In this document: positions 2,775 to 25,196 of the stretch, piece by piece
Position numbering within the stretch: position 1 is the first letter of the stretch
Layout: every line of letters begins with the position of its first letter
Source of the DNA: Ailanthus altissimus
Taxonomy: Eukaryota > Streptophyta > Magnoliopsida > Sapindales > Simaroubaceae
DNA length: 64,000 nt
Assembly (NCBI GenBank): GCA_946807835.1
Contig: OX327699.1
Span: 25,842,014-25,906,013 of the forward strand
Direction of reading: 5' to 3'
Program-made: the position numbers and the translations under genes
Notes under the pieces: model-generated
What the model saw: the letters and a program-made list of their open reading frames with translations, nothing else
What the model was told of the DNA's origin: nothing
The model's database searches: none

Positions 2775-5237
2775 TCAATAGTAAGGGTTTGCCGAGTTCC
2801 TTTCACAAGAGTAGTCATCCTGGAAAGCCCTTTCTGAATTGATCAGGCTATCTACCTGCTCAATTTCAAACTCGGAATTCAACAAATGACAACCATTACT
2901 AAGGACGCTAAAATATGAGTATCCCTGTTCTGGATAAATTGGTGACTGCTGTGAAGAGAATGAGTCATTATCCAGCACATTGTAGTTGTTACTTGCATTC
3001 AATTCTGCAAATACCAAAGGTTCTGCCAAAAAAGTAGTTTTGTTGGCATGATTTATAAAATAAGAAACCAAATGCTGATTTGATGGTGGCTGTGACTCCA
3101 AATCAGTATTTAGTGGAGGTTGTGAAACCAAATGCCGATTTGGTGGTGACTGTGTCCCCAAATCAGGATTTCGTAGTGGTTGTGAAACCAAATGCTGATT
3201 TGGTAATGGCTGTGTCTCCAAATCAGGATTTGGTAGTAGTTGAGAAACTGTGTTAGAATTTTCTACAATATGATTTCCATAATGAGAAATCAAAGGGTGA
3301 TTTTGAAGTAGTTGCAACTCTGAGGAAGCATTTTGCACAACATGATTTCTAGAGTCGGAAATGAAATCATGATTTGGTAGTGGCAGAAATTCTGAGGGGT
3401 TTTTTTCTACATTATGGTTCCCGGAACAATAAAAAATATTGTGATTTGGTACCAATTGAGACTCGGAGGAATTATTTTCTACAATATGATTTCTGAAAGA
3501 AGAAATTACATTGTAATTCCCGAATGGTTGTGATTCTGTAGAAGTATTTTCTGTCACGTAATTTGTAAAATAAGAAGTCAAATTGTGATTTTGACATATC
3601 TGGAACTCGGGGGAAGTATTTTCTGAAACATAACTTTTGGAAAGTCGAGAGTCCAAAGAAATATCTTCGGCAAAATGACTTTGAGAAATCAGTTTCTCAT
3701 TTGGTAGTATTTGCAATTTTGGGGAAGTATTTTTTACAGTCTGATTTCCAGAAATAGAAATCAAACTGTCATATGGAAGTAGTTGTGGGTCTAGGGAAAC
3801 ATTTGCTGTAACGTGAATTGTAGAATCACAAACCATATAGTCATTTGATAATAACTGCAACCCTGGGGAAGTATTTTCTAGGGTGTGATTTGTAGAATAA
3901 GAAATGAAATCGCGATTCCATGGTGGCTGTGCCTCTGGAAAAGCAATTTCAGCAGAATGATTACGATAACAAGAAATGAAATGGTCACTAAGTGGTGGTT
4001 GAGTTTCATACTGATTTCTATTAGAAACCAACTGTTGATTCGGTGGTGGTTGTGCCTCTGGAAAAGCAATTTCAGCAGCATAATTACGAGAACAATAAAT
4101 GAAATGGTCACTGGGTGGTGGTTGAGTTTCATGCTGATTTCTATTAGAAACCAACTGTTGATTCGGTGGTGGTTGTGCCTCTGGAAAAGCAATTTCAGCA
4201 GCATGATTACGAGAACAAGAAATGAAATGGTCACTGGGTGGTGGTTGAGTTTCATGCTGATTTGTAATAGAAACCAACTGTTGACTTGGTGGTGGTGTCG
4301 ACTCCGATAAAATATTACCGGTAACATGAATTCTTGATGGAGAAACCAAATGTTGACTTGATTGACCATCATTTGTTGAAATAGGATGCTTGTTATCTCG
4401 TTTTCTTACGCGACATACAACAAACTCCTCCTGTAGAAATAAAAACAAACAAAAAAAAAAGCAAAAATAAGCTCACCGTTTGGAATGTATAATCAATCAT
4501 TTTCCGGCAACAGCTGATTAACACTTCCGGAATATTACTTCTCACCGCATTAAACTTAATGAGTAACTTCTTATCGATGTCGAACTTCAAAAGAGAAAAC
4601 ATTTTTTTTAAAAATAACATAAGATCTGAGTTCTGGGCATGGAACTGATAAGTAATGAAGTTCAAAACAAAACCAAATACACTTGGCAATAATTTCTAAA
4701 AGAAATGAACTTCGATACCTTAAAATCTGGGTTGTGCTGGGCATGGAACTGATGCATAACCCACTCGGTCTTTGCTTCCTTGGGATTAGGACCATGACAG
4801 TAGAAAAGCAAAATGGTTTTGCCACCGATCACTTGGTTACTATCCTTTGCCTTGATCTTCGAACCTCTGCCAGTGACTTTCCAGTATCCTTCATTTGTTC
4901 TTCTGTGTTCGCGGTTACTCTTTGCATACTTGTAATATGGTTTACAGAAAAAGTACCACACTTGTTCCTTAGAGTTGATCTTTGATTTCCCTGCATCAAG
5001 ACAAAACAACGACTTAGTTTTGAAAACTAGTTACAGCATTTGGTTGAACTAATTGAATGAAGAATAAGTTGGTTACTTACAAGGCAAGTCCCGAGGCTCA
5101 TGTTTGTAGATATCGATCTCCGCAATTGCGTAATGGATGAAAGCGGGGTCAAGCCTCTTCTTCTCCAAACAATGGATGATATTTTCATTACTGGGTTGAA
5201 ATCCAAACCCCAAGTAACTTTCTTCTGTTGGTTCCAT
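2775..5237 (-). CDS. NAC-domain transcription factor with long repeat tail (NAC-1)
   Basis: Spliced model on the minus strand: exon 1 5237-5081, exon 2 4990-4719, exon 3 4430-2775, giving 694 aa. All junctions are GT-AG and the reading frame joins exactly (the split codon restores the NAC motif DLPW). Residues 1-145 are a divergent NAC DNA-binding domain: GFGFQPSNE (subdomain A), EIDIYKHEPRDLPW (B/C), YWKVTGRG (D) and WVMHQFHAQ (E), then EEFVVCRV. NAC proteins are plant transcription factors whose C-terminal part regulates transcription. The tail here is about 550 residues, far longer than a usual NAC tail, rich in Gln, Pro, Asn and Ser, and built of degenerate repeats of about 20-25 residues with an NHxxEN core. 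Three consecutive 41-residue copies are near identical. No membrane segment is evident. The domain assignment is firm. The DNA target and function are unknown. Confidence 0.85.
3935..4300 (-). repeat. 123-bp in-frame tandem repeat in NAC-1 exon 3
   Basis: Three copies with a period of exactly 123 bp (41 codons); landmark positions are 3981, 4104 and 4227. Each encodes a segment with QPPPNQQLVSNRNQ, ETQPP and DHFI. High identity between copies means recent amplification or gene conversion. Flanking parts of the exon show older, diverged versions of the same unit. Confidence 0.92.
4619..4662 (-). repeat. Copy of exon-2 3' end inside NAC-1 intron 2
   Basis: Intron 2 holds a degenerate duplicate of the end of exon 2 (about 4719-4757). 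Both share a stretch with TCTGGGCATGGAACTGAT-like sequence and encode QFHAQ followed by a short acidic tail. The same micro-duplication is in unit B (about 17519-17562), so it predates the large duplication. It could act as a cryptic exon end, but no evidence shows use. Confidence 0.7.
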
Positions 5238-7354
5238 ACAATGGAGAAAAGAGAGAGTGAGAGCTGTGATCAGTAATTTGATGGGAAGAAAATTGGCTAT
5301 GCAAGAATGAGTGAGTGAAGCGATCACTCATTTATTTGACAATGGGTCCACGGTCTTGCTTTACTGAATTCTAACGCGTGCCATTGCTTCAGTAATAGAA
5401 TTTGACGTTTCCTCCAACGCGTTAAGTAGGATATCACGTGATGACGGAGTCACGCTACCAAGGGCCTCTATGCTAGACACTTTTAACTACTGCTATCTTT
5501 TTTTCATTTTTTTTAATCTTTGGGAGACCCCACCTTTCCCTTGTAAGATTCCTCTTTGCCTTTTGAGTCCAAGTGACAAGGGATTGGAATTAGTGGAAAA
5601 ATTAGTGTACAAGTCTGTGTAAACTCACTTGGATTGGAGCTACCTGAAATCTAGAATCTTTTGTTACTTTTGCTCTCTTTCTCTGCAACTTCCTCTCCTG
5701 AGGGAGGGATGATTATGAAGATTGACGACCAAGAAAATAATGACAATGACATGTACATTGTAATACAGTGATAATATTCTTGATTTATAATTTTTATTTC
5801 TCACATGGGAACATCTGTAAATGCTGACTGTTCTCATTCTTTCAGACTAAATGTGGTGAAATATTTTTTTAGGCGCGTGTGTGTATATATATATATATAT
5901 AACCGAACTATCATGCAAGAGAGAAGTTAATCCATTTGTAATAGATGTATTTCATATTAACAAGTATAATCTCATTTATATTTTAAATTATGATTATAAT
6001 TTCTTAAGAGTTTATTCCATGTTAGATAAATTGTGGTGATGTGATAGAGTCTTTTTATATAGAAGGGGACAATATAAAGAAGAGTATTCCCTCTGCCTAC
6101 TGAATTAGTAAAAAAATCGAAAGGCATGTCTACTTAAAATTGCAAGTAATTGCATGGGATTGGCTAGCCTAAAGTGTGATTCTAGTATCTTCCTTCTCTG
6201 AGTGCTCGAGTCCAAGTCTTCGCCACTGTGTAAAGCATATGATGGATTTTAATTTATGGTTTGAAGGAGATGTCCCCCGGAACTCAGAATTGATTTTGGT
6301 TTCGAAAGCCATTCGTTGCAGATTCTCTCAGGGGCAGAACAAAATTTTTTTAACTGGGACAGTCAAAATGTGAAATACCGAAAAAAAAAGTTAAATATTT
6401 GTCTAATTTCGTAATTGGAAATTATTGTTTGTCTATTATAAATATTAGCATATTATTGTAATATTTTAAAAAAAATTCTACAATTAGGGACTATATACAA
6501 AAAGCAAAAAAAAAAATAAGAAGGCCAAAACCTATAATAAATAACTGCAGAATTAACATATAATTATATATTCACATTAGTAACAAATTTTTGTGGGATC
6601 CTGAGGGGCCAAGTCCCTCCAGCCCTTAATGTAGAAATCGTAAGAACTCTTCTGACTGTCTATTGAGGTTTGATTCTGCCAGAGTCTGTTGAACTAGTCA
6701 ATTCATGTTGCAGTTTTGAATACCCAGTAATAGCACGGTGAAGCACTAAACTAGCTGAAGCTAAATGCACAAGTATAAGCTCAAGCAGAACCTCTACCTT
6801 GTAGTACTACTCATCCCTCAAGATCATGTTTTGCACAAAACAAATGGAGTCGTTGACGACTTATTCCTGTGAAGGGGTAGCTCAAGACAATTGATATGAA
6901 GTATATGCCTATGCCTATTTAGGTTGAGATAACAGGAAGAACGTGTACTGCAAAGATCTCATATACAAAAAACTCATTACCATTCACGGATGTAAGAGGA
7001 TAGATTTCACAGGTATATGAACCATTCACATCTTTGCTTGTTTTTTTTTTGAACAAGAATCTTTATTTCCATTAAAACAAGCTCCCCGTTTCATGAACTA
7101 AGGCCGCACCACTTACATAACGAAATGGATAGACAAGTTGAGCAGTTGAGCTTTCAACTGTTGCAAAATAAGGCGCGCCAAACTGACCATACTAGGAATA
7201 AAATAAAGCACGTGCTAAGCATTATGACAATATCAATAGCTATATTCTCCTAGAGAATTTGATATTTATTTACCCATATTATTGGAGTAATATTTCTCCA
7301 TTAGCTAAAGGAGAATATTCATTTACTCAGGTGTAGGCGGTTTCGGTGTTTCTA
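5238..7354. other. Region between NAC-1 promoter and NAC-2 3' end
   Basis: The NAC-1 promoter and 5' leader lie just after 5237. A piece homologous to 5419-5505 reappears at 17039-17125 fused to the truncated NAC-1'. Bases about 5890-6410 and 6550-7000 have counterparts at 20555-21110 and 21125-21545. A TA microsatellite sits at about 5884-5901. No coding gene is supported; the open frame at 6176-6373 is matched only by a disrupted counterpart at 20.84-21.1 kb. Confidence 0.6.
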
Positions 7355-10300
7355 TCACTGCTGTCCCCAAAAGGAACTTCTGTGGCGGATTTTGACTGAG
7401 TTGAATCCAAGAGGAAGAGCATGTCCAGTTTCTTCAAGAGGGCATTTGTCATGGACAGCCCATTGTGAATTCACATCTTCTTGCTCACTGTCAAATTGAA
7501 AATTCAACGCATTACAGTTGTTACTAAATCCATCAGAGTATGAGGATGATCTCTGTTCCACAGTAGCTGGGGAAAATATCCCAGAAAAAGAACCCTGGTC
7601 CAACCAATTACAGCCAGAAAGTGCATCGTGTTCTGTATTAGTTGGTGACTGCAGTGCAGGGAAAGAGTTATAATCCATCTGATTATAACCGTACTGTGCA
7701 TCAAATTGTGCAAGTAGCATAGGTTCCACCTATAACCACAGAGGAAGAAACATCAGTTCTCCAAATGTTTCTCATGCACAAAATACATAAGTTTAACATT
7801 TGAAATTCTTTTGAAAGCATAGTCATTCTACCTCAGAAAAAATATGTTCTATAGTTTGATCTCTAAAATCAGAAATCAAATACTGACTTGGTAGTTGTTG
7901 AGATTCTACCTGAAATAAGAATCATGGCACGCATAAGCATTACTTCTGGATGTATTTCTCATCATTATGGATATTAATTGATACTGAAAAAGGATTATAA
8001 ATGCAAGCTTTTTCTTACCCATGGAGAAATATTTTCTACAACATGATTTGTAGAATTTGAAGCCAAATGGTGACTTGGTATTAGTTGTGATTCTTCCTGA
8101 AATACAAACCATTGACAAAGTAACATTAGTTCTGAATGTTTCTCAGGCACTACATGTTTAAGTTACATTGGTAACTACCCACAAGTCACGTTCTTTCTCA
8201 CCGTTGGAAGATTATTTTCTGCAACATGATTTCTATCGTCAGAAGTCAAAGAATAACTTAGTAGTTGATATCCTACCTGAAGTAAAGACCATGAACAAAG
8301 AAGCATTAAATTCTGGATATGTTATATCATATATCACATATGCAAGTTGATATTAAAGAGCGCCTATAAGTTGAGCTTTTTCTCACCCCAGGAGAAATAT
8401 TTTCTGCAACATGATTTCTAGAAGCAGAAGCCAAAATGTGATCTTCCTGAAATAAGAACATAGATAGCATTAGTTTCAAATATGTTTCTCATGTACTACA
8501 TGTATAAGTTCATTATGAAATCTGACTACAAGGTACGTTCTTACTCACCCTTGAAAAAATATTTTCTGCAACATGATTTCTAAGCATTGATTCTACACAA
8601 CATTGAATTGGCAATTGACAATTTAAGCATAAATTATTCTCTTTCTTACCCCCTGAGCAGTATTTTCTGCAACATGATTTCTAGAATCAAAAGGTATGTG
8701 ACTTGGTGGTTGCTGAGGTTCTACCTGAAATCAAATGGCGAAGAATTACTAATTTAAGATGTTATTCACATACACAAAATGTATAACTTAATATTGGAAC
8801 TGCCCATAAGGTACATATGCTTCATCTCACCCTTAGATAGGTATTTTCTGCAACATGATTTCTAATAGTAGAAATCATAAAAGCACCTGCTATTTTTTCA
8901 TTTTCTACCTGAAAGAGATAGCCACAAACAAATAAGCATTGATCATTGAAAGGTTCCTTATACACAACACTTATGAATTGGTATTTGACAATTTAAGCAT
9001 AAATTGTTCTCTTTCTTACCCCTTGAGCAGTATTTTCTGCAACAAGATTTCTAAAATCAAAAGGCATGTGACTTGGTAGTTGCTGAGGTTCTACCTGAAA
9101 TCAAATGGTGAAGAAGTACTAATTTAAGATGTGATTCGCATACACAAAATTTATAACTTAATATTGGAACTGCCCATAAGGTACATATGCTATGTCTCAC
9201 CCTTAAATAGGTATTTTCTGCAACATGATTTCTACTAGTAGAAATCATAAAATCACCTGCTACTTTTTCATTTTCTACCTGAAAGAGATAACCGCAAACA
9301 AATAAGCATTGGTCATTGAAAGGTTCCTTATACACAGCATTTATGCATTGGTAATTGACAATTTAAGTATAACTTGTTCTCTTACTTACCCCTTGAGGTG
9401 TATTTTCTGCAACATGATTTCTAGAATCAAAAGGCATGTGATTTGGTAGTTGCTGAGGTTCTACCTGAAATCAAATGGTGAAGAAGCATTAATTGAAGAT
9501 GTGATTCGTATACACAAATTGTACAACTTAATATTGGAACTGCCCATAAGGTATATATGCTTTGTCTCACCCTTAAATAGGTATTTTCTGCAACATGATT
9601 TCTAAAATTAGAAGTCATATGATCATCACTAGGTAGTTGTTGAGATTCTACCTGAAGTAAGAACCAAAAGCCAATAAGCATCTTTTTATAATATGTTCCT
9701 AATGAACTACATGTACATATTGACATTGAAATCTTAAAACAAATTTCTTCTCACCCTTGAAAAAATATTTTCTTCAACATGATTCAAAATATTAGAAGCC
9801 AAATGGTGACTTGATTGACCATCATCACAGGTTGAAATTTTAGGCTTGTTTTTTGTTTTTCTTTCTATGCGGCAGATAACAAAATCCTTCTACACAAATG
9901 AAAGTTCAAAGCAATATGAGCTCACAATCTAGAATGTTGTATCAATTATTTTCCAGAAAAGACAAATTTTCATTAATTCTGCTAGTATAATACATATCAA
10001 ACTTCCAGAAAAAAAATACAACAGATTCTTATTCATCAAAATAAACTCATATGCACGTTGAGTTTACTTAGTCTCATCCATGTGATTTTCAAAAAAAAAA
10101 AAAAAATAATGTGATTGGAGTAAAAAACAAAGCTTTCAATTTCTCGTAAATTACACATGAATTCCACATAAATGAACTTAAGTTTGCAACTTAGGCTGCC
10201 TAATGAGACCAACCAATCAAAATCAAAATCCAGGCACCCTCACCAGTCATTTAAATCGTCAAAACAACATTATAATCATGAAGGGGGACCGAATATTTAG

Positions 10301-10972
10301 CCTTTCGCTAAATTCAATAAAGTATATTAGCTAAAATTATTAGAAACATACATTCCACGAGTAACCCATCACTAAAGCAAGGATATCAATATAACCCATA
10401 ACAAATCATAGCAATATGCACAACAGTTCAGACAATTGAAATAGCAATTACCTTATGAAGACGGTTGTACTCGCAACGAAACTCATGCATGACCCATTCA
10501 GCCTTGTGCTTCTTAGAAGCATTACCATGTTCGCAGAAAACCAAAAATTTCTTTTTACCAACCACATCCTTGCTTTTTTTGGCAAAAATTTTACAACCTT
10601 GACCTGTAACTTTCCAATATCCTGTCTTGGTTCTTCTGCGGACAAGCGTACCTTTGTCATTCTTGTAATAAGGTGCGCAAAAGAAGTACCAGACCAGTTC
10701 CTCCGACTGAATTGCAGAAAGTCCTACATCACAAGCAAAATAAAACGAAAAAATTATTATCATTTTTGCGATTGCCTTGGTGGGTGTTTGATATGAGCCT
10801 GACTGATAGTATGATCGTGGTACTTACGGGGTAATTCGGAAGGTTCGAAGTTGTAAATATTAACTTCGTTAATTGTTTGGACGGAGAAATCAGGGTCAAG
10901 TGTTTTCTTGTTGAGAAGACTGATGATTTCAACGTCTTTCGGCTGGAATCTGTATCCAACGAGATCTCCCAT
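7355..10972 (-). CDS. NAC-domain transcription factor with mini-exon repeat tail (NAC-2)
   Basis: Spliced model: 10972-10828, 10723-10452, 9889-9755, then mini-exons 9651-9571, 9464-9390, 9278-9201, 9094-9020, 8908-8831, 8724-8650, 8446-8387, 8276-8202, 8096-8019, 7909-7832, and last exon 7729-7355, about 559 aa. Every intron after exon 2 is phase 0 with GT-AG ends. The NAC domain (residues 1-145) shows GYRFQPKD, EVNIYNFEP, GYWKVTGQG and WVMHEFRCEYN, then KDFVICRI. The usual Trp after LP in subdomain C is Arg. Each mini-exon encodes about 20-27 residues, usually starting VE and containing an RNHVAEN-like core. The last exon is acidic and Gln/Asn/Ser rich, like a transcription activation region. 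Actual splicing could skip mini-exons without frameshift; the model assumes all usable ones are included. The function is not known. Confidence 0.82.
7832..9651 (-). repeat. Array of symmetric phase-0 mini-exons
   Basis: Ten usable mini-exons (lengths 81, 75, 78, 75, 78, 75, 60, 75, 78, 78 bp), all multiples of three and all bounded by phase-0 introns, plus one dead unit. Two types alternate at the 5' side: a 75-bp type (VEPQQLP...RNHVAENTAQG) and a 78-81-bp type (VENEKVAG or VESQQLP...RNHVAENTYLR). The two-exon plus two-intron module recurs with a period of about 370 bp (exon starts 9464, 9094, 8724). Introns also resemble each other, so whole modules were amplified. Confidence 0.88.
8549..8596 (-). 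pseudogene. Dead mini-exon in NAC-2
   Basis: This 48-bp piece still encodes the 3' half of a mini-exon (RNHVAEN core) and keeps a good GTGAGT donor, but its 5' half and acceptor AG are gone. The sequence before it is intron-like and joins straight into the exon. The only nearby AG would shift the frame. The same defect sits at about 23119-23166 in unit B, so it arose before the segmental duplication. Confidence 0.75.
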
Positions 10973-11471
10973 TTCGAATTGATTAGGGAGAGTGCAATGG
11001 GGCTAAGCTTGCTTTTCTGTATCTCTGGTTTTAATGGAAGAATTTAGAATTAGATAGAGGGAAGGGAAAATCATTTTATATACGCACAAAGGCTAAAGCC
11101 ACCGCCTTAAAACTTAGATCTTGTCTCCGACGCCGTTAAGTAGAGTAAGCCGTTGGTGAGAATTTAGATGGTAAGGGGTCTGTTAACGACCGTTAATAAC
11201 GGCGTGGCTGTTGAATGACGTGTGGTTTTAAGTGTTAACATCGTACAACTACAATCAGCTTTCCAGCTAAGAGTGTCCATCTCCTTCTTGCAGAAGGAGT
11301 GGCGCTGGAGAGGTCAAAAGACTTTTTCACACGTGTCCCCTTCCTCCGGAAGTACTAGAATCTTCCTCTACTCCTTTTGTTTTGTTTCTAAGGACCATGC
11401 TAATAAGATGGCATTTCACAAATTTCAAAAAGAAAATGACATTTGGACGGGTTAATAGTTGTTTTTAAATT
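10973..11471. promoter_or_regulatory. NAC-2 upstream region
   Basis: This contains the NAC-2 5' leader and promoter (transcription leftward). The block at about 11100-11450 is conserved at 25300-25620 (upstream of NAC-2') and, from about 11200, again at 18605-18860, including an ACACGTGTCCCC motif with a CACGTG G-box-like core in all three. Three-fold conservation shows shared ancestry; regulatory use of the CACGTG core is inferred. Confidence 0.5.
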
Positions 11472-11610
11472 GAGCATGGGGGCTCAGCCAAGTTGGCTAA
11501 GCCCCCCAAGGACTCACATCCCCACCTGGGTTCGACTCCCCCTTCCCCCCAGGTGGTGCGAAAATGTTGATAAATTTGTAATCCCCCCTTCAAAAAAAAA
11601 AAAAAAAAAA
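11472..11610 (+). mobile_element. tRNA-derived SINE with poly-A tail
   Basis: A 139-bp insertion begins GAGCATGGGGGCTCAG, carries a perfect RNA polymerase III B box (GGTTCGACTCC at 11529-11539) and a weaker A-box-like TTGGCTAAG, and ends in a run of about 19 A. It is flanked by an exact 18-bp target duplication, AATAGTTGTTTTTAAATT (11454-11471 and 11611-11628). The paralogous position in unit B (about 18894-18915) has one copy of the target and no insert. It is not a functional tRNA gene: there is no cloverleaf anticodon arm. Confidence 0.92.
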
Positions 11611-11745
11611 AATAGTTGTTTTTAAATTAATTAAGTCTGTTTTTAATTTATATTACGTATATTCAATTACAATAATTTGAAAAGAAATGTTTGATTTATT
11701 TTAAATATCACTGTACTCTTTAATTTATATTGCAAATATTTTTTA

Positions 11746-12900
11746 AGGATAAGTATAATTTTATCCTCATGTTTTGAGTTAATTAATAATTTTATTTTGA
11801 TTAAATTTAAAATATTAATTTTTGTTATAATTCTTTAATTTTTTCTGTCAATTTAGACGAAAAATATACATTTATTATTTTACCCACAATAGTAACACAC
11901 ATAAAAATATATAAAATATATTTAAATTGACACATGTCATTATATGATTTGTTATAAATAACACGTGTCATCGTATAATTTATTTTATTATTAATAAAAT
12001 AAATTAAAAATAAAACTGACACTGTCACTGTCACCAAAAAACGACAGCTTGCCGACCACCATTTTTTAATGATACACCAACAACAAAAATTTATTAAATT
12101 TACATCATTAGACTCCATTTTTCTTGATCTACATAATGGTGAGATCATTTTTGATAAAAAAAAGGACCAAAAAATAGTTTTAAATGATGGAGAGAGGCGG
12201 CGGCCACCGCCGATCGCCGTTAAACAGTGAGGCGGTGACTTTGCACCGCCGAAATTTGATCTCACCACTGTGTAGATCAAGAAAGATAGAGTTCAATGAT
12301 GTAAAGTTGATAAATTTTTGTTATCGACATATCGCAAAAAAAAGGTAGTCGGCGGTTGGCAGGCTGTCGTTTTCCGGCGACAGTGCTAGTTTTTATTTTT
12401 AATTTTTTTATAATTTAATTTATTTACAAATTATTGTAAAAAAAAAATAAACCAATTACATGGTGACACATGTTTAAAAGTACTAATCATATTTTAACAC
12501 GTATCATATTGTTAAAGTTTATTTTTAAATTTATATTAAATTAAATTAATAGATGAGATTGTGCTACGTGTTTGAAAAGACAATGAATGGATAAGATTTT
12601 GTCACGAATTCAATAGGTCATTTTGACACGTGTCATATTGTTAAAATTTATTTTTAAAATTATATTAAATTAAATTAATGGATGAGATTGTGCCACGTAT
12701 TTGAAAAGACAATGAATGGATAAGATTTTGTCACGTGTTCAATGAATAATTTTTTTGTATGGTTAAATTATATTTTTATCCCTCCATCATTAAAACTAAC
12801 GACAAAAATTAATAAATTATAACAAAATTGAGTATTTTAGATCTAATCGGGATAAGTTGTTAATTAGTCCAAAATATAAGGATAAATTTGTACTTATCCC
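11746..12900. mobile_element. Fold-back MULE-like nonautonomous element
   Basis: A 1155-bp element with long imperfect inverted arms. The left end AGGATAAGTATAA matches the complement of the right end (GGGATAAGTACAA), and pairing continues for several hundred bases, including the CACTGTC..CGACAG blocks near 12015-12060 and 12345-12380. The outer flanks carry an identical 9-bp duplication, TATTTTTTA (11737-11745, 12901-12909), the size expected for Mutator-like elements. The centre (about 12155-12260) is GC-rich. No transposase is visible; the open frame at 11825-12280 lies across an arm and is not a gene. Unit B has the uninterrupted site at about 19055-19090. Confidence 0.85.
12491..12748. 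repeat. 129-bp tandem duplication inside the fold-back element
   Basis: Two copies, starting at 12491 and 12620, share blocks such as TCATATTGTTAAA and GAAAAGACAATGAATGGATA at constant 129-bp spacing. They lie in the right arm only, so the right arm is longer than the left. Confidence 0.85.
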
Positions 12901-13064
12901 TATTTTTTATTCTAATTAGTACGACACCTAAGTCTTTTCTATGTTTTTGTTTGTTAAAGTATTTAAATGTTCATGTCAGTTCCGTTAACCCTCTAAAAAC
13001 TCTCCCAACCAAAAACTTAAAAATAGTCGCCGTCAATATCTCTCTCTCACTTTGTTTTTTTTTA

Positions 13065-13880
13065 AGATTAAGGACGAGAAAAAAAAAATTGGGTAATCAA
13101 AAAATCGAATTGAATCAGCTAATTTGATTCGGTTCGATTCTTCTTTTTGTCACAAAAATTTGATTCGATTATATTTTTTTTAAAATTAACTGATCAAGTT
13201 CAGTTCCAGTTCGATTTAAAAAAAAAATTAACCGAACCAGTTTAACCGATTTTTTAATTATATTAATAAAAAAATTTTAATTTATCTCAAATTAAATAAA
13301 TTATAATTATGTTAATATGAAATAGACCCAAAAATTAGGTCAAAAAATTATTTACTAAATTATTTAGACAAATAAATTAAAAAAAGCCTACAATTTAAAA
13401 TAAAAAATCAAAAACAGTATAAAATTTTAAATATTTATATAATATATAAGAACAAATTTAGTAATTTATATAATGTGTAATGAATTTTTTTTAATTATAT
13501 AATATATAACGTGTAATATGTAATAATTTAGTCAATTTAATTTGTTAAAGACATATAATATATAAGACCAACTTTAGTGCCTTATATAATGTGTAATGAT
13601 TTTTTTATTATTATATAATATATTAATTTAGTCAACTTAATTTTTTAAATATAAGAACAAATTTAGTAACTTATGTAACGTGTAATAAAAAAATTATAAA
13701 AAAATGATCTATTTGGACAAATAAATATAAAAAAGCCCATAATTTAAAATAATAAAAAAAGTCAAAAAACCGAACTGGACCGAACCTACAAAAATTGGTT
13801 CGGTCCAGTTCAATTTTTTTTCTTAAAAAAATTGGTTTTGATTTTACTTATTCAAAAAATTGAACTAGACCGTACCCACC
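13065..13880. mobile_element. MITE-like AT-rich region with GGTTCGGT termini
   Basis: Both ends carry related GGTTCGGTTCGATT / AACCGAACTGGACCGAACC motifs in opposite orientation (about 13125-13245 and 13770-13870), around an AT-rich core. The core holds about three diverged copies of a roughly 100-bp unit (starting near 13445, 13555 and 13650) with the phrase TATAATGTGTAATGA. No target duplication was found, so family and exact ends are uncertain. Confidence 0.5.
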
Positions 13881-15492
13881 CTTTATTGAATATGACTATT
13901 TTAGCCCATCTCTAGTGGTCTGCGAAACACTTCTTACTCTCTCTTAATAACTTTAGGTTTTATTTTTCTGACTTATTTTCTATTTCCTTCACTATATGTT
14001 TGTTTCGGCCGGCCGAGTTAGATTCGGGGAGTTTTTAGCCTCGATCAAGTTTCCTAGGCCCTCACCATGTCACCTCAGCCTGGCCAAGCTCCTCCGACCA
14101 CCGCTAGGAATTTTTTCTAACAATTTCTTTGATTGGGTTCGACCGCTTTGTTTCTCGACGGCAACTGAAGCAACTAGGTTGCACTTTGCCTTCACCTTCT
14201 TAAAAACAAGACATCTCACTGATCGGTTCTGGCCCAACCATACCACCATTGATGTGTTCCCACCTTTGTCCATCCTCTGAACCCACCACCGAGCTAACCG
14301 CCATCAAGTACTTGCCCTTGTATTTGAGCAAATAATGCTCATTACAGTTGCACTCCTGTCTATTCTAATGCGAAATAAGCATCAGTGGCTTTCAAACTAC
14401 TTCATAGTTGCCGCTTTGAGCAACCATTTTATTTGGGTTTATATTTTGTTTGTTATGTTGTGAATGTACTATTGTTGTATATATTACCAACTTGATAAGG
14501 TATGAGTTTGTATTAGACGGAGATTGTATATGTATTTTGGTGATTATATCTCTTTTGTGTGAGGATGATTTTTATTCCTCTTGTTCGATAACTTTTTTAT
14601 TTTCCCACTTATGTGTGTAATTTTTTTTTTTTTTGTTAGGGTATAGTCTCTTTTACGTGAGCGTATGACTTCTCGTCTTAATATAAGTAGAATGTAAAAA
14701 ATTTTATTTGTGGATGGTCCCTAATTATGAGTTATTATTTTTTTTAGAAATTTTTTTTAAAATATAATTTAAATTTAAATGTTTGTTAATAAATTTATAT
14801 TTAAGTTATCCTGATAATTCTATACTTGGTAGTCTCTGTAATCTTGATTTTTGTCAATAATATTAAATTACTTAAAAAAATATATCTAAATGTCCTTACA
14901 TTAAAATAAACGAAAGAAATTAACAGACAGGAGCGTCTCAATCATTTTTGAAACCATAAGAATTTTTTAATAACCCGCAGGACCACAGGGTCCATAAGTC
15001 AATAATCCATTCTTTTGAGATGAGTTGTTTCTTTTGTTACTACCTATTAAAATTGTATTAAAGAATAATAACTAACGATTTTAATATGTTCATAGTTTAG
15101 GACATATTAATTGTAAAATGTTTTTTTTTTCTAATTTAATGTTTATGAAACGTTTTATATAAATTAAATATATTGTGCATAATTTTATTTACTGTATTAA
15201 CGGTTTATCTTTCGTCATTAATAATAGGGTAAGTTAGTATTATAAAATAATTCAATCGTATATTATGAAATGGTGCGGTTATAGAGGACATTTGTTGCAA
15301 TATTTTAAAATCGAGGCTTTTATTGGTAAAAAAGTTATGTAAGTATCTATATTAAAACCCCCCTCCCCATAAAAAAAATCTATATTAAAGGGGTTGAATT
15401 TTTGGAACCTTCGCATTGTAAACATTTGAAGATATAAGATTCAATTTTGACGGTGATGAGAAGGTTTTTTTTTAAAAAATTCAGATGTAATA
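13881..15492. other. Intergenic, no supported gene
   Basis: A GC-richer patch at about 13980-14320 contains a 94-codon open frame (13996-14280) with no recognised domain. The rest is AT-rich. A poly-C/poly-A tract lies near 15357-15375. I see no gene that I can support. Confidence 0.5.
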
Positions 15493-17038: not shown

Positions 17039-17125
17039 GCGTTAAGTAGGATACCAGGTGGTGACAGTCATGCTACCGAGAGCCTCTGTGGTAGACTCTA
17101 TTAACATTTTTGCTATATTTTTATT
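17039..17125 (-). other. NAC promoter fragment fused to NAC-1' exon 3
   Basis: Bases 17039-17125 align with the NAC-1 promoter at 5419-5505 (shared GCGTTAAGTAGGATA, GCTACC, GCCTCT, GCTAT landmarks). On one side they join exon 3 at ATGCTGATTTG (the equivalent of about 4254), and on the other side the NAC 3' flank (the equivalent of about 305). The orientation is the same as in a normal promoter, as if a neighbouring NAC gene had once begun here. Confidence 0.85.
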
Positions 17126-18140
17126 TTTATGCTGATTTGTATTAGAAACCAACTGTTGACTTGGTGGTAGTGGCGTTGGCTCCGATAAAACATTACTGGA
17201 AACATGAATTCTCAATGAAGAAACCCAATGCTGACTTGATTGACCTTCATCATTTGTTGAAATAGGATGCTTGTTATCTCGTCTTCTTTTAACGCGACAC
17301 ACAACAAACTCCTCTTGTAAAAAAATTAAAGCCAAAAAAAAGAAAAAGCAAAAAATAAGCTCACTGTTTAGAATGTATAATCAATCTTTTTCCGGCAACA
17401 GCTGATTAACACTTTCAGAACATTACTTCCCACCGCATTAAACTTAATGAGTAGCTTCTTATCGATATCAAATAAGTCAATGTCGAACTTCAAAAGAGAA
17501 AACATTTTTTTAAAAAATAACATAAGATCTGAGTTCTGGGCATGGAACTGATAGGTAATGAAGTTCAAAACAAAACCAAATACACTTGGCAATAATTTCT
17601 AAAAGAAATGAACTTCGATACCTTAAAATCTGGGTTGTGCTGGGCATGGAACTGATGCATAACCCACTCGGTCTTTGCTTCCTTGGGATTAGGACCATGA
17701 CGGTAGAAAAGCAAAATGGTTTTGCCACCGATCACTTGGTTACTATCCTTTGCCTTGATCTTCGAACCTCTGCCAGTGACTTTCCAGTATCCTTCATTTG
17801 TTCTTCTGTGTTCGCGGTTACTCTTTGCATACTTGTAATATGGTTTACAGAAAAAGTACCACACTTGTTCCTTAGAGTTGATCTTTGATTTCCCTGCATC
17901 AAGACAAAACAACGACTTAGTTTTGAAAACTAGTTACAGCATTTGGTTGAACTAATTGAATGAAGAATTAGTGGGTTACTTACAAGGCAAGTCCCGAGGC
18001 TCATATTTGTAGATATCGATCTCCGCAATCGCGTAATGGGTGACAGCAGGGTCGAGCCTCTTCTTCTCCAAACAATGGATGATAGTTTCATTACTGGGTT
18101 GAAATCCAAATCCGAAGTAACTTTCCTCTGTTGGTTCCAT
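17042..18140 (-). pseudogene. Truncated chimeric NAC-1 copy (NAC-1')
   Basis: Exon 1 (18140-17984) and exon 2 (17893-17622) are intact and encode a complete NAC domain nearly identical to NAC-1. The exon 3 acceptor has changed from CAG to CAA; a substitute AG a few bases downstream (exon from about 17311) would keep frame with loss of one Glu. Exon 3 keeps only about 60 codons up to the first repeat, then runs into a piece of NAC promoter and stops at 17042. If expressed, it would make a NAC domain with almost no regulatory tail, of the kind that could act as a dominant competitor. That role is inference. It may equally be a dead copy. Confidence 0.8.
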
Positions 18141-21100
18141 AGGTAATTTGATGAGAAAATTAGCCGTAAGAACGAGTGGGTGAAGCAATCACTCATTTAT
18201 ATGACAATTGGTCAACGGTTTTGCTTTACTGAATTCCAACGCGTGCTGCAGTAATAGAATTTGACGTGTCCTCCAACTAAGTTGAGTAGAATATTAAATA
18301 ATTATTCAACGATAAAAAATATAATAATTAATTTTAAAATTTATATTATTATTTTTAATTAATAATTATTTAACATATTTTAAAATATATAATATTATTT
18401 TTAATCCATTTTTAAATATGTAGTATTGCTCTTATAAAATAATTCAATCAAATATTATAAAATAGCCGTTAATATCGACATGAAATATCAAGTAAGTGGC
18501 TGTCGAACGACGTGCCATGAAATTTCAAGATTGTGGTTTTTTTTTTTTTTATAATATACGGGAAGAAAGATTCAAACTTAAATTTTTAAGATAAACTATA
18601 AACTCTTTTACTAACGGCGTGGTTTTAAGTGTTATTATCGTACAACTACAATCAGCTTTCAGTTAAAGAGTGTCTCCTTCTTGGAGAAGGAGTGACATTG
18701 GAGAAGTCAAGAGACTTTTGACACGTGTCCCCTTCCTCCGAAAATACCAGTAAATTAATACTATTAGAATCTTCTACTCCTTTTGTTTTGTTTTCAACGA
18801 CTATGCTTAGATGGCATTCAACCATTTTCAAAAAGGAAAAGAAAATGGCGTTGGACATTCGTATACAATGTTAATATTAGTTGCCGATTGAATTTATAGT
18901 TGTTTTTAAATTAATTAAATCTTTTTTTAAAATTTATTTTATGTAAATACAATTATAATAATTTGAAATAAAATAATTAATTTAAAATAATAATTAATAT
19001 AATTATAATTGACACTAAAACTTTTAAATATTACCGTACTCTTCAATTTATATAGCAAATATTTATTTATTTTAAGTAGTATGACATTTAACATATTTTT
19101 AACTTTTTTATAGTTAAAATATTTAAATGACACTTTAATATCATTTACGTTTAAAGTCTTTTTATTATACGTAAGTATATTTATAAAGTATTCATAACTT
19201 GAAAATAGAGAACACAATAAGATAATTATTTTATTCTCATCCTCAATTTTAATGTCAATTATTTTAAAGTTAATGATAAATTTATTGAAAGCATCTATAT
19301 AATCTTTTATTTAAGTTACCTTAGACATAGACAATTAATTTAACTTCTTCTTAATAATAGATGATTCGCTGATGAATTCGTCATATAAAGGCCATCAAGT
19401 TTTTTTTTCAAGACTCAAGATCGTTTTTTCTCTAACCACCTTCTTTAGAATTTCATGACTCAAAGATAATAATACTATAGTACTATGGATTCTTTTTTTA
19501 ATGATTTCTCTGTTTAAGCCATTAAGTTTTGTAAATTTCTTCTCTTTATTGGTTTGAGTTTCCTCAAGGGTTCAATTTAACCATTGATTTACTAATATAA
19601 CTATAACACTTACCTTATATAGATTGAAATCATTTATCCTATTGAATCTTTTTTTATTTTATACTTTATGAGTTGCTATGGTTAAACTAACATATACTCT
19701 AATACCAATTTTTTTGCAGGTTTTAACGTGTAATCTAAGAAATTCTTAACACTTTGTGAAAGTTTTTTTACTTACAAGCAACCAAGAATAATAAAAATTA
19801 TACAAGCAAGAAGATAAATAATTAATCAAGCAAAGAACGCACACAATCAATGTACATGATTCGACAAACCACTTACGTCCACAGTGGATTTGATTCGTAA
19901 CTTCTTTATTCCATTTTTTTGTACACAAAGAACCCACAAGAAATATAAGAAATATTTAAATACCCAAGAGCTATTAAATATTTATTTCATACTATCTTGT
20001 GTACTCAAATTACTCAAGTATGATCTAAACTCTCTATTATCTCTTTTGTTGATGTTTTGATGTTTAATGAATTCTAAAAAATTATAAGGGTTTATATAAT
20101 GTTAATACCGACCATAGAAATTTTAAACTTAGTTAGAATAAGAATTCACACGTTATAAGAGTTCAAAATCGACTTTAAGATGTAATTCTACAAAAAATGA
20201 GTTTTTCCAAATAGGCAACGTTGCAACTCAGGAGCTAATGCTACAACTTTCAAACGTGAAATTGAGTCAACATTGCGACATTGAGCATACTGAAATTGGC
20301 GCCTGGCACTGAGTTCTCAGCGTCATGGCGTTCAGACGAGTCAAGTCTTCTCTTATACTTTCGTGCCCTTTCTCGCATTCGATTTTCATTTTTAATCATT
20401 GCTTGTTCATTTAAAGTATTCTTAACCTCATCTCAACTCATTCTTTTCTAACTCAATATCAAACTTGATCTTAACTTTAATTCACCAAATTTTAACATAA
20501 ATAAATATTTAAATATATAAATATATTTTTATATATGTTTAGCAGCTGTTATCTTTTAACCAAACAATCATGCAACAGAGAAGAAATCCATTTGTAGATG
20601 TATTTTATGTTACCGAGTGTACTCTGATTTATATTTTAAATTATGGTTATAATTTTTGAGAGTTTATTCCATGTTCGATATATTGTAGCGATGTGATGGA
20701 GTCTTTTCATAAAGAAGGGGACAATATAGAGAAAAGTATCCCCTCTTCCTTCTTTATGAGTAGTAAAAAAAATTCAAAAGGCATGTCTGCTTTAAATTGC
20801 AAGTAATTGTCTGGGATTGGCTAGACTAAAGTGTGATTCTTGTATCTTCCTTCTCTGCCCTGTCTAAGGCTTCGCCATTGTATAAAGCATATGATGGATT
20901 TTATTTATGGTTTGAAGGAGGTGTCCCCCGGAATTTCAGAATTGATTTTGGTTTCTAAAGCCATTCGTTGTAGATTCTCTCAGGGGCAGAACCTAATTTT
21001 TGAAACGGGTATTCAAAATGTGAAATACCGGAAAAAGAGAACACAAGGTTTATTGTTTGTCTACTTCCGCAATTGGGGGCCTGACGCAAAAAGCAAAGGC

Positions 21101-21965
21101 CAAAACCTATAATTCATAGCTTAAGGACTAACATATAATTATATGTTCATATTAGTGACAAGTTTTTCTGGGATCTCGAGGGGCCAAGGCCCCTCCAGCC
21201 CTGAGCGTAGAAATCATAAGAACAAATCTTGCTGTCTGTTGAGGTTTGAATCTGCCAGAGTCCGTTGAACTCGTCAACTCATGTTGCAGTTTTCAATACC
21301 CAGTAATATCACGGTGAAGCAGTTAACTAGCAGAAGCTAAATGCACAAGTGGTAGCTCGCAGAACCTCTACCTTGTAGTTTTACTTTTTACTTATCCCTC
21401 AAGATACTCTGTTTTGCACAAAACAAATGGGGTCGTTTAGGACTTATTCCTGTGATGGGGTAGCTCAAGACAATTGATATGAAGTATATGCATATTTAGG
21501 TTGCCATAACATGAAGAACGTGTATAGCAAAGATCTCATATACAAAACACTCATTGCCATTCACGTATGAAGAGGATGGATTTCACTCGGTATATATGAA
21601 CCATTCACATCTTTGCTTGTTTTCATTTCGAACAAGAATATTTATTTCCATTAAAACAAGCTCCCGTTTCATGAACTGGGGCACACCACTTACATACCGA
21701 ACACCACTTGCATACCGAAATGGATGGACAAGTTGAGCAGTTGAGCTTTCACCTGTTATAAAACAAGGCGGGCCAAACTGACTATTCTTGTAGATAACAA
21801 AGCTAGGAATATAGCATAGCATGTGCCAAGCATTATTACAATATTAATAGCGATATTCTCCTAGAGAATTTGATTTTTATTTACCCATACTATTGAAGTA
21901 ATATTCTCCATTAGCCATTGAAGAATATTCAATTTACTCAGGTGTAGGCAGTTTCAGTGTCTTTG
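18141..21965. other. NAC-1' upstream region, AT-rich inserts and NAC-2' 3' flank
   Basis: Bases 18141-18290 match the NAC-1 promoter. Bases 18290-18600 are AT-rich and new. Bases 18605-19130 match the DNA upstream of NAC-2 in unit A (11.2-11.73 kb and 12.90-12.97 kb, with both unit A insertions absent). Bases 19130-20540 have no counterpart; the block near 19840-19900 has phrases seen in plant LTR elements (ACTTACGTCCAC), but no LTR pair was found. Bases 20545-21960 match 5.89-7.35 kb. No intact gene was seen. Confidence 0.6.
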
Positions 21966-24900
21966 TCACTGCTGTCCCAAAAGGAACTTCTGTGGCTGAT
22001 TTTGACTGAATTGACTCCAGAAGGAAGAGCATGTCCAGTTTCTTCAAGAGGGTATTTGTCATGGACAGCCCATTGTGAATTCACATCTTCCTGCTCAAAA
22101 TTGAAAATTCAACGCATTACAGTAGCTACTAAATCAGTCAGAGTCCGAGAATGATCTGTGTAGTTGGAGAATGTAGTCCAGAAAAAGAACTCTGGTCCAA
22201 CAAATTACAGCCAGAAAGTGCATTGTGTTCTATATTAACAGGTGACTGCAGTGCAGAGAAAGAGTTATAATCCATCTGATTATAACAGTACTCTGCATCA
22301 AATTGTGCAAGTAGCATAGGTTCCACCTGTATAACCACAGAGGAAGAAACATCAGTTCTCGAATGTTTCTCATGCACAAAATACACAAGTTTAAAATTTG
22401 AAATTCTTTTGAAAGCATAGTCATTCTACCTCAGAAAAAATATGTTCTGTAGCTTGATCTCTAAAATCAGAAATCAAATAGTGACTTGGTTGTTGTTGAG
22501 ATTCTACCTGAAATAAGAATCATGGCACGCATAAGCATTACTTCTGGATGTATTTCTCATCATTATGGATATTAATTGATACTGAAAAAGGATTATAAAT
22601 GCAAGCTTTTTCTTACCCATGGAGAAATATTTTCTACAACATGATTTGTAGAATTTGAAGCCAAATGGTGACTTGGTATTAGTTGTGATTCTTCCTGAAA
22701 TACAAACCATTGAAAAAGTAGCATTAGTTCTGAATGTTTCTAGGCACTACATGTTTAAGTTATATTTGTAACTACCCACAAGTCACGTTCTTTCTCACCA
22801 ATTGGAAGATTATTTTCTGCAACATGATTTATATCGTCAGAAGTCAAAGAATGACTTAGTAGTTGATATCCTACCTGAAGTAAAGACCATGAACAAAGAA
22901 GCATTAAATTCTGGATATGATATATCATATATTACATATGCAAGTTGATATTAAAGAGCGCTCATAAGTTGAGCTTTTTCTCACCCCAGGAGAAATATTT
23001 TCTGCAACATGATTTCTAGAAGCAGAAGCCAAAATGTGATCTTCCTGAAATAAGAACATAGATAGCATTAGTTTCAAATATGATTATGAATCTGCCTACA
23101 AGGTACATTCTTTCTCACCCTTGAAAAAATATTTTCTGCAACATGTTTTCTAAGCATTGATTATACACAACATGTATGAATTGGTATTTGACAATTTAAG
23201 CATAAATTATTCTCTTTCTTACCCCTTGAGCAGTATTTTCTGCAACAAGATTTCTAGAATCAAAAGGCATGTGATTTGGTGGTTGCTGAGGTTCTATCTG
23301 AAATCAAATGGCGAAGAAGTACTAATTTAAGATGTTATTCGCATACAAAAAATGTATAACTTAATATTGGAACTGCCCATGAGGTACATATGCTTCGTCT
23401 CACCCTTAAATAGGTATTTTCTGCAACATGATTTCTAACAGTAGAAATCATAAAAGCACCTGCTACTTTTTCATTTTCTACCTGAAAGAGGTAACCGCAA
23501 ACAAATAAGCATTGATCATTGAAAGATTCCTTATACACAACATTTATGAATTGGTATTTGAAAATTTAAGCATAAATTGTTCTCTTTCTTACCCCTTGAG
23601 CAGTATTTTCTGCAACATGATTTCTAGAATCAATAGGCATGTGACTTGGTAGTTGCTGAGGTTCTACCTGAAATCAAATGGCGAAGAAGTACTAATATAA
23701 GATGTGATTTGCATACACAAAAAATGTATAACTTAATATTGGAATTGCCCATAAGATACGTGTGCTCTGTCTCACCCTTAAATAGGTATTTTCTGCAACA
23801 TGATTTCTGAGATTAGAAGTCATATGATCATCACTAGATAGTTGTTGAGATTCTACCTGAAGTAAAAACTGAAAGCTAATAAGCATCTTTTTTTAGAATA
23901 TTTTGAATGAACTACATGGACATATTGATATTGAAATCTTAAAACAAATTTCTTCTCACCCTTGAAAAAATATTTTCTTCAACATGATTCATAATATTAG
24001 AAGCCAAATGGTGACTTGATTGACCATCATCACGGGTTGAAATTTTAAGCTTGTTTTTTGTTTTTCTTTCTATGCGGCAGAAAACAAAATCCTTCTACAC
24101 AAATGAAAGTTCAAAGCAATATGAGCTCACAATCTAGAATGTTGTATCAATTATTATCCAGAAAAGACAAATTTTCATTAATTCTGATAGTATAATACAT
24201 ACCAAACTTCTAGGAGAAACAAAATACAACAGATTCTTATTCATCAAAATAAACTCATATGCACATTGATTTTACCTAGTCTCATCCATAATGATTTTCC
24301 CAAAAAAAAAAAAAAATATGTGATTGGAGTCCAAAACAAAGCTTTCAATTTCTCCTAAATTACACATGAATTCCACATAAATGAACTTAAGTTTGCAACT
24401 TAGGCTGCCTAATGAGACCAATCAATCAAATCAAAATTCAGGCACCCTCACCAGTCATTTCAATCTTCAAACAGCGTTATAATCACGAGGAGGAACTGAA
24501 TATTTAGCCTTTCGCTAAATTCAATAAAGTATATTAGCTGAAATTATTAGAAACTTACATTCCACGAGTAACCCATCACTAAAGCAAGGATAATAATATA
24601 ACCCATAACAAATCATAGCAATATGCACAACAGTTCAGACAATTGAAGTTCATGGTGAGTGCCAAATTATAGCAATTACCTTATGAAGACGGTTGTACTC
24701 GCAACGAAACTCATGCATGACCCATTCAGCCTTGTGCTTCTTAGAAGCATTGCCATGTTCGCAGAAAATCAAGAATTTCTTTTTACCAACCACATCTTTA
24801 CTTTTTTTGGCAAAAATATTACAACCTTGACCCGTAACTTTTCAATATCCTGTCTTGATTTTTCTGCGGACAAGCGTACCTTTGTTATTCTTGTAATAAG

Positions 24901-25196
24901 GTGCACAAAAGAAGTACCAGACCAATTCGTCCGACTGAATTGCAGAAAGTCCAGCATCACAAGCAAAATAAAACGAAAAAATTATTATCATTTTTGCGAT
25001 TGCCTTGGTGGGTGTTTGATATTAGCCTGATAGTATGGTCGTGGTACTTACTGGGTAATTTGAAATGTTCGAAGTTGTAAATGTTAACTTCGTTTATTGC
25101 TTGGACGGAGTAATCAGGGTCAAGTCTTTTCTTGTTGAGAAGACTGATCATTTCTTCGTCTTTCGGCTGGAATCTGTATCCAACGAGATTTCCCAT
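21966..25196 (-). pseudogene. Decayed NAC-2 copy (NAC-2')
   Basis: Homologous exons: 25196-25052, about 24950-24676, 24094-23960, mini-exons 23856-23776, 23667-23593, 23481-23404, 23297-23223, 23044-22985, 22874-22799, 22694-22617, 22507-22430, last exon from 22326. Lesions: the exon 2 acceptor reads CTG instead of TAG; the conserved YWKVTG Trp codon is TGA (24844-24842); mini-exon 22874-22799 is 76 bp, a +1 frameshift; the last exon has a deletion giving an early stop near 22138. One module (two mini-exons) fewer than NAC-2 is present. Most mini-exons are nonetheless intact, so decay of the NAC domain is recent or the tail persisted by chance. Confidence 0.88.

What the first reader, a model, noticed from the sequence alone, without database searches (positions are those of the whole stretch)
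7832..9651. Mini-exon array: a repeat-built NAC tail cut into symmetric phase-0 exons
Ten usable 60-81-bp exons, all multiples of three and all in phase 0, each encode one about 25-residue unit, mostly with an RNHVAEN-like core. Any subset can be spliced in or out without breaking the frame, so this gene could make many tail variants from one NAC DNA-binding domain. This resembles repeat exons of titin- or tropoelastin-like genes more than any NAC gene I know. Exon structure is seen directly; alternative splicing is inference.
Basis: partly seen in the sequence, partly recalled or inferred. Interest (0 to 1): 0.9.

Follow-up and report, generated by a model that had tools for sequence, protein, structure and literature searches.

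The report
Plant regulator gene with mini-exon tail
A plant gene-switch protein has a tail built from near-copies of one 25-amino-acid unit, ten of them each on its own tiny exon that could be added or dropped without spoiling the message; relatives in mango, pistachio, maple and citrus carry related units, but it is not yet shown that this gene is spliced in different ways.

Summary
The minus strand carries a complete 14-exon NAC gene (10972-7355, 559 aa). Exons 4-13 (9651-7832) are ten mini-exons of 60-81 nt, all multiples of three, all phase 0, each one repeat unit. Ten of the eleven array introns are 102-111 nt; one of 203 nt holds a broken unit. Many introns resemble each other, so exon+intron modules were duplicated.

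A unit profile scored only in NAC proteins labelled Sapindales or unlabelled (0 of 44 other rows). Eight non-Citrus protein pairs are identical outside gaps; six of these have an in-frame difference at the E|V boundary where this gene's mini-exons begin. Most are cross-annotation comparisons, not proven isoforms of one gene.

So the symmetric cassette design is confirmed and probably shared with relatives. Splicing variation in this gene is untested, and the units show no protein-level purifying selection (small counts). Filed as a new variant of a known kind: a repeat-exon array in a plant transcription factor.

The parts
10828..10972 (-). gene B exon 1: start codon and first part of the NAC domain; ends in phase 1
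   Evidence: NAM domain
10452..10723 (-). gene B exon 2: central NAC domain (GYWKVTG)
9755..9889 (-). gene B exon 3 (135 nt): end of NAC domain (KDFVICRIERK) plus first repeat unit
   Evidence: a 45-aa block of like content is absent in one of two Pistacia models
9571..9651 (-). mini-exon 1 (exon 4, 81 nt)
9390..9464 (-). mini-exon 2 (exon 5, 75 nt)
9201..9278 (-). mini-exon 3 (exon 6, 78 nt)
9020..9094 (-). mini-exon 4 (exon 7, 75 nt), core RNLVAEN
8831..8908 (-). mini-exon 5 (exon 8, 78 nt)
8650..8724 (-). mini-exon 6 (exon 9, 75 nt)
8549..8592 (-). broken further unit inside the 203-nt intron 9: donor kept, no acceptor that keeps the frame
8387..8446 (-). mini-exon 7 (exon 10, 60 nt)
8202..8276 (-). 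mini-exon 8 (exon 11, 75 nt)
8019..8096 (-). mini-exon 9 (exon 12, 78 nt)
7832..7909 (-). mini-exon 10 (exon 13, 78 nt), degenerate core, weak donor
7355..7729 (-). gene B exon 14 (375 nt): C-terminal part and stop
   Evidence: alignment with relatives
8604..9643 (-). three copies of a 300-nt repeat spaced 370 bp, each step holding two mini-exons
   Evidence: (family D1)
21950..25196 (-). gene B', decayed second copy, about 90% identical (ends approximate); 8 recognisable mini-exons between 23856 and 22430, 7 of 8 multiples of 3; NAC exon 2 without acceptor AG and with an in-frame stop; frameshifts in one mini-exon and in the last exon
2775..5237 (-). gene A: sister NAC gene, exons 5237-5081, 4990-4719, 4430-2775; 13 profile-scored units, all in the last, 1656-nt exon
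17042..18141 (-). gene A', copy of A cut short early in the repeat tail

Best explanation
Gene B is a NAC transcription-factor gene of a plant related to Sapindales. Its C-terminal tail grew by repeated duplication of an exon+intron module. Each module is one 20-27-residue unit between AG and GT in phase 0, so modules can be gained or lost in the genome, or skipped in the pre-mRNA, without breaking the frame. SHOWN: the module structure, similar introns, a two-exon (about 370-bp) difference between B and its copy B', and a unit without a usable acceptor whose omission leaves the flanking exons in frame. INFERRED: the exons are spliced into one 14-exon mRNA; the tail is flexible and hydrophilic (GRAVY -0.74; 34 acidic, 14 K/R and 16 H of 251 residues) on a DNA-binding NAC domain; its length is set mainly by exon number in the genome and secondarily by cassette skipping, as protein models of relatives suggest.
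For: Complete 14-exon model with a 559-aa open frame; NAM domain; NAC structures as sequence matches. Intron similarity, 37 of 55 pairs with z above 3; 370-bp blocks. B' lacks two of the ten mini-exons. Relatives, pairs 100% identical outside gaps: absent block of 45 aa (Pistacia P0032/P0059), 46 aa (Xanthoceras P0020/P0041), 50 aa (Acer P0086/P0093), 50 aa (Mangifera P0034/P0040, labelled X1 and X2), 29 aa beginning VR and ending VQ like a retained intron (Mangifera P0047/P0049, one LOC), 4 aa at SSE|VESQ (Mangifera P0058/P0062, one LOC); in P0032 and P0034 the printed gap must be slid by 1 and 9 identical residues to reach the boundary. A stray Q at M|V between two Pistacia copies (P0007/P0029) and inside P0071, as a doubled CAG acceptor would give.
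Against: No transcript of this gene. No skip of a single 26-aa unit within one gene: P0063 and P0070 (P. atlantica) lack exactly such a unit against P0032 or P0053 (P. vera), different species. Two of eight identical pairs differ elsewhere (P0010/P0013, P0036/P0053), and the 87-aa block of P0058/P0062 does not start at E|V. Xanthoceras and Acer pairs come from different annotations. The units show no protein-level constraint: B/B' dN 0.039, dS 0.024 (18 against 3 changes); tandem copies pooled dN/dS 0.99; all pairs 0.389/0.252, not independent. B' keeps a tidy array although its NAC part is dead, so tidiness does not prove recent use. 18 of 55 intron pairs do not exceed z 3. The exon 13 donor is weak.
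Confidence: 0.65

Rival explanations
1. Constitutive array: all ten mini-exons are always spliced in; the modular design is a by-product of exon+intron duplication, and tail length varies between genes and species, not between transcripts.
For: Even short introns (10 of 11 at 102-111 nt) with good sites; B and B' differ by a genomic two-exon step; scored unit numbers differ widely between related proteins (1 to 13).
Against: Protein models of relatives with whole-block differences, two of the pairs under one LOC name; weak donor of exon 13.
Confidence: 0.4
2. Gene B is recently silenced and its array a relic like that of B'.
For: Copy B' is dead, A' is truncated, one unit in B is broken, and the units evolve without visible protein constraint.
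Against: B keeps start, stop and GT-AG at all 13 introns with no frameshift and an intact NAM domain; NAC exons B/B' give dN/dS 0.48; a TATA-like stretch stands about 100 nt before the ATG (by eye).
Confidence: 0.22
3. Artefact: a tandem repeat whose units merely look like exons.
For: Tandem arrays are common in this stretch (26 TRF rows in 1-20000); the exons were picked for AG/GT and open frame.
Against: 10 of 10 exon lengths are multiples of 3 against 4 of 11 array introns; neutral simulation; the unit recurs in NAC proteins of other genera.
Confidence: 0.03

Closest known systems
Repeat-tailed NAC proteins of Anacardiaceae (Pistacia P0071 = LOC116136180, P0007, P0032; Mangifera P0058 = LOC123211313, P0047 = LOC123203999)
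   Same: NAC domain; tail blocks of about 26 residues that begin with V[EGQD], E|V or M|V boundaries, in-frame block differences between models
   Different: Unit sequence has drifted (the unit profile scores only 1 unit in P0071 and 5 in P0058; the other blocks were seen by eye); exon borders inferred from proteins only, no DNA seen
Citrus repeat-tailed NAC proteins (P0001-P0004, P0011)
   Same: RNHVAEN core repeated in the tail; models differ in tail content
   Different: Six Citrus pairs that I picked join at HVA|EN, with Q or K at the joint in 4 and E in 2; Q or K fits a phase-1 acceptor within the core rather than whole mini-exons. Five of the six compare different species or annotations, and other Citrus gaps join elsewhere
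Gene A in this window
   Same: Sister NAC gene with a similar unit (13 scored)
   Different: Whole tail in one 1656-nt exon, only two introns
Titin- and tropoelastin-type repeat-exon genes (recalled)
   Same: Many short symmetric exons of one phase, each a repeat unit
   Different: Animal structural proteins with proven combinatorial splicing; here a plant transcription factor without transcript data
Arabidopsis MAF1/FLM mutually exclusive exons (passages of PMC3266260)
   Same: Exon choice alters a plant transcription factor
   Different: Two exclusive exons, not an array of ten cassettes
Litchi LcNAC34 (14 exons) and Zanthoxylum ZbNAC080 (eight introns, short exons), passages of PMC10379382 and PMC9103986
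   Same: NAC genes of Sapindales with unusually many exons
   Different: No repeat array mentioned in the passages seen; relationship to gene B not tested

Membership tests
NAC transcription factors | NAM domain PF02365 above its gathering score | tested here: met
   104.5 bits against cut-off 27, residues 5-131
NAC transcription factors | sequence match to solved NAC domains | tested here: met
   NAC domain-containing protein 92 E 1.4e-24 and 19 E 1.4e-21, among 4 matched sequences
NAC transcription factors | DNA binding | not testable with these tools
   needs an assay
Sapindales repeat-tail NAC clade | NAC domain groups with repeat-bearing Sapindales proteins | tested here: met
   31 of 37 rows (genes A and B, 27 labelled Sapindales, 2 unlabelled) split from six other NACs with support 100/99; place of B inside is unresolved; midpoint root
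Sapindales repeat-tail NAC clade | tail contains the 25-residue unit | tested here: met
   11 scored units in B; 144 hits in 57 of 142 proteins at 8 bits; 0 of 44 rows not labelled Sapindales (10 of them unlabelled); iterated profile gives no hit in the shuffled part of three shuffled sets
Membrane-bound NAC (NTM1/NTL type; definition recalled) | C-terminal transmembrane helix | tested here: not met
   highest 19-residue hydropathy mean 0.6, at residue 47 within the NAC domain
Titin/tropoelastin-type repeat-exon genes (definition recalled) | array of short symmetric exons of one phase | tested here: met
   10 of 10 exons, phase 0
Titin/tropoelastin-type repeat-exon genes (definition recalled) | combinatorial inclusion of the exons in mRNA | not testable with these tools
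   no transcript of this organism held; protein models of relatives only

The most novel reading that the evidence does not exclude
A plant transcription factor whose regulatory tail is dosed by counting: up to ten interchangeable phase-0 mini-exons are spliced in variable number, so that one DNA-binding domain carries tails of different length, while the exon number itself ratchets up and down in the genome by unequal exchange between modules. In the same window a sister gene amplified a similar unit a second way, within one intron-free exon, and Citrus models hint at a third, a splice acceptor hidden inside the repeat core: one clade with three ways to vary one protein tail.
Probability: 0.27. 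Interest if true: 0.8.

Novelty: new variant of a known kind. Interest (0 to 1): 0.6.

Why it matters
Combinatorial repeat-exon arrays are known to me mainly from animal structural proteins (recalled), and plant alternative splicing has been argued to have only a limited role in expanding the proteome (abstract passage of PMC2674458). A transcription factor with ten interchangeable tail exons, beside a sister that encodes a similar tail without tail introns, is a natural pair for asking whether the exon design itself matters: one clade, neighbouring genes, with and without the means to splice. It also bears on how flexible regulatory tails lengthen and shorten in evolution without frameshifts.

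Tried and rejected
Rejected: chance repeat; membrane-bound NAC; 'unique to this gene'; use of the broken unit as an in-frame exon (44 or 17 nt). Left open: that gene A lost its tail introns through a cDNA copy. A keeps two upstream introns and has none in the tail, but A and the Citrus proteins lack the 'VE' seen at the joints in B (by eye), and A's nearest row in the tree, Citrus P0085 (94/85), has no unit scored at 8 bits, so growth within an exon is at least as likely.

Led nowhere: viral-contig scan with alignment A1 (83 pattern matches, none a relative); paper searches for NAC mini-exons and microexons (2 and 2 papers, judged by listing), for symmetric exons and Sapindales NAC repeats (0 and 0), and for mango and citrus NAC structure (listings only: 19 of 19, 15 of 42 and 10 of 32 papers seen). 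The species was not identified; identities to the 27 hits are 31-52%. P0028 is a low-complexity stray.

Limits: one search listed 120 of 211 proteins; one search scored only the 7994 candidates sharing most words. All 140 held proteins went into; the tree used 35 of them plus genes A and B, and several rows were cut early or at a default length. The gap of B' against B was placed by the aligner and can slide within the repeat; whether B gained or B' lost the block is open. In one search the un-iterated profile also gave hits in the shuffled sets (14 at 8 bits); only for the iterated profile did I check that its 18 hits lie in the part left unshuffled. My 'about 18 units' for gene A (note) was by eye; 13 are scored.

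Full report
WHAT IS THERE. The window is plant DNA of 33% G+C. On the minus strand a 14-exon model runs from 10972 to 7355 and encodes 559 amino acids. Residues 5-131 are a NAM domain (104.5 bits); the four solved-structure matches are all NAC or NAM proteins. Exons 1 and 2 are the NAC core, exon 3 ends the NAC domain and carries a first repeat unit, exons 4-13 are the ten mini-exons of the finding, exon 14 is a 375-nt terminal exon. The finding's coordinates are exact to the base.

THE ARRAY. Mini-exon lengths in order are 81, 75, 78, 75, 78, 75, 60, 75, 78, 78 nt, all phase 0 on both sides. Ten of ten follow CAG; nine of ten are followed by GTRAG, exon 13 by GTAGAATG. Ten of the 11 array introns are 102-111 nt. 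Nine of the 11 bring an in-frame stop if retained and the other two shift the frame; 4 of 11 intron lengths are multiples of 3 against 10 of 10 exon lengths. A further unit at 8592-8549 kept its donor but has no acceptor that keeps the frame (44 or 17 nt); leaving it out joins exons 9 and 10 in frame.

ORIGIN. A 300-nt repeat recurs three times at a 370-bp step, two exons and two introns per step, at 93% and 85% identity to the first. Introns 4/6/8 are 88-92% alike and introns 5/7 91%. Of all 55 intron pairs, 37 exceed z 3 against shuffled sequence and 18 do not (range 0.2-34, ends trimmed). So the module that multiplied is exon plus intron, probably single modules first and two-exon blocks later; introns of the oldest modules have drifted far.

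THE SECOND COPY. A self-comparison of the window shows genes A and B both duplicated downstream. B' (about 25196-21950) is roughly 90% identical to B. Its NAC exon 2 lacks the acceptor AG and has an in-frame stop, and there are frameshifts in one mini-exon and in the last exon. Eight mini-exons are recognisable, 7 of 8 multiples of 3. Against B, the equivalents of exons 5 and 6 are missing; the aligner puts both gap edges into introns, but within such a repeat the gap can slide, and whether B gained or B' lost the block is open. Either way exon number changed by a whole two-exon step, which leaves the frame alone.

THE SISTER GENE. Gene A (5237-2775) has two introns in the NAC part and then one 1656-nt exon with 13 scored units, with internal repeats of 123 and 60 bp. 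In the tree it joins Citrus P0085 (94/85), in which no unit scored at 8 bits. A probably grew its array inside an exon, so two neighbours amplified a similar unit by two routes.

RELATIVES. Three protein searches found relatives in Citrus, Pistacia, Mangifera, Acer, Dipteronia, Xanthoceras and Litchi. A unit profile from B, iterated once, gives 144 hits in 57 of 142 proteins at 8 bits; 0 of 44 rows not labelled Sapindales are hit (10 of these are unlabelled), and its 18 hits in three shuffled sets all start before residue 150, in the part left unshuffled. Before iteration the profile gave 14 hits in the shuffled sets at 8 bits, whose places I did not check. In a NAC-domain tree of 37 rows, 31 (A, B, 27 labelled Sapindales and two unlabelled proteins) split from six other NACs, among them one of Mangifera and one of Citrus, with support 100/99. 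The searches reach only proteins sharing short words, so 'Sapindales only' describes these results.

PROTEIN MODELS OF RELATIVES. I compared all 140 held proteins pairwise. Twelve pairs are 100% identical outside gaps; eight are not Citrus. Six of these eight include a difference at a boundary like that between mini-exons: 45 aa absent before VESQ in Pistacia (P0032/P0059), 46 aa in Xanthoceras (P0020/P0041), 50 aa in Acer (P0086/P0093, which also differ at the C-terminus), 50 aa in Mangifera (P0034/P0040), 29 aa that reads like a retained intron in Mangifera (P0047/P0049) and 4 aa in Mangifera (P0058/P0062). In P0032 and P0034 the printed gap must be slid by 1 and 9 identical residues. Against: P0010/P0013 and P0036/P0053 differ elsewhere, and a second, 87-aa block of P0058/P0062 does not start at E|V. 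Only P0047/P0049 and P0058/P0062 carry one LOC name; the Xanthoceras and Acer pairs come from different annotations. The 45-46-aa blocks match exon 3 of gene B (135 nt) in place and size. One exact 26-aa unit is absent from P0063 and P0070 (P. atlantica) against P. vera models, so between species. Pistacia P0071 shows about ten blocks of 26 or so residues from V to M, some with a stray Q before V (by eye), as a doubled CAG acceptor would give; the profile scores only one of them. That 'isoform X' names mark RNA-seq-guided predictions is recalled, not checked.

CITRUS. Six pairs that I picked for it join at HVA|EN; the joint is Q in two, K in two and E in two. Q or K (codon form NAA) is what a phase-1 acceptor after GCAG would give; E does not discriminate. 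Five of the six compare different species or annotations, and other Citrus gaps (for example P0039/P0043, P0045/P0075, P0079/P0081) join elsewhere. No Citrus DNA was available, so the hidden acceptor is a hypothesis.

SELECTION. B against B': mini-exons 21 differences in 600 sites (3.5%), array introns 56 in 1027 (5.5%), NAC exons 31 in 552 (5.6%), last exon 31 in 361 (8.6%). dN/dS is 0.48 for exons 1-3, 0.85 for the last exon, 1.66 for the mini-exons (18 against 3 changes); tandem copies within B pooled give 0.99. The units look conserved as DNA with splice sites and frame, not as protein sequence. This speaks for length or composition mattering more than exact residues, or for relaxed constraint; the numbers are too small to choose, and half the B/B' path belongs to a dead gene.

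HOW IT MOST LIKELY WORKS. The NAC domain would bind DNA as in other NACs (family knowledge). The 251 residues of the ten mini-exons are rich in S, N, E, V, Q and P, acidic on balance and hydrophilic, and no stretch looks like a membrane helix: a flexible regulatory tail by inference. My estimates, from no call: 0.85 that the mini-exons are true exons, 0.5 that this gene makes detectable skipped forms, 0.2 that such skipping is regulated and matters.

LITERATURE. Passages of the litchi NAC survey (PMC10379382) report 1-14 exons, LcNAC34 having 14. Passages of the Zanthoxylum survey (PMC9103986) report one NAC gene with eight introns and short exons, and five adjacent tandem NAC genes. Neither passage mentions a repeat array. 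The ten paper searches were made; no title or abstract start listed there describes this array. Only open-licence papers are held, so this is weak evidence of absence.

VERDICT.

Noticed in passing
window 2775-5237 and 17042-18141: Gene A carries a similar repeat tail in one uninterrupted exon with 123-bp and 60-bp internal repeats; its copy A' is cut short and ends in about 85 bp (17039-17122) that resemble A's own upstream region (5419-5502, 80%).
   Followed up: partly
window 21950-25196: Decayed second copy B' of the mini-exon gene, with one two-exon block fewer.
   Followed up: yes
Citrus proteins P0001/P0008, P0003/P0009, P0011/P0016, P0011/P0018, P0050/P0060, P0074/P0079: In these six picked pairs the shorter form joins at the HVA|EN repeat core with Q, K or E at the joint, which hints at a 3' splice site inside the repeat core.
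   Followed up: partly
window 36911-37604 and 43798-44495; 36656-36916 and 38454-38714: Two dispersed duplications at about 93% identity, the longer one overlapping an ORF at 43800-44093 without a Pfam match.
   Followed up: no
window 11990-12147 and 12257-12414: Inverted repeat with arms of about 160 bp (78% alike) close together, looking like a small foldback element.
   Followed up: no
window 62594-63999: Copia-type retrotransposon coding region (gag, pre-integrase and Pol beta-barrel domains) running off the window.
   Followed up: no
window 7832-7909: The donor of mini-exon 10 (GTAGAATG) resembles the start of several other mini-exons (GTAGAATC) more than a usual donor, as if this boundary were once read straight through.
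   Followed up: no
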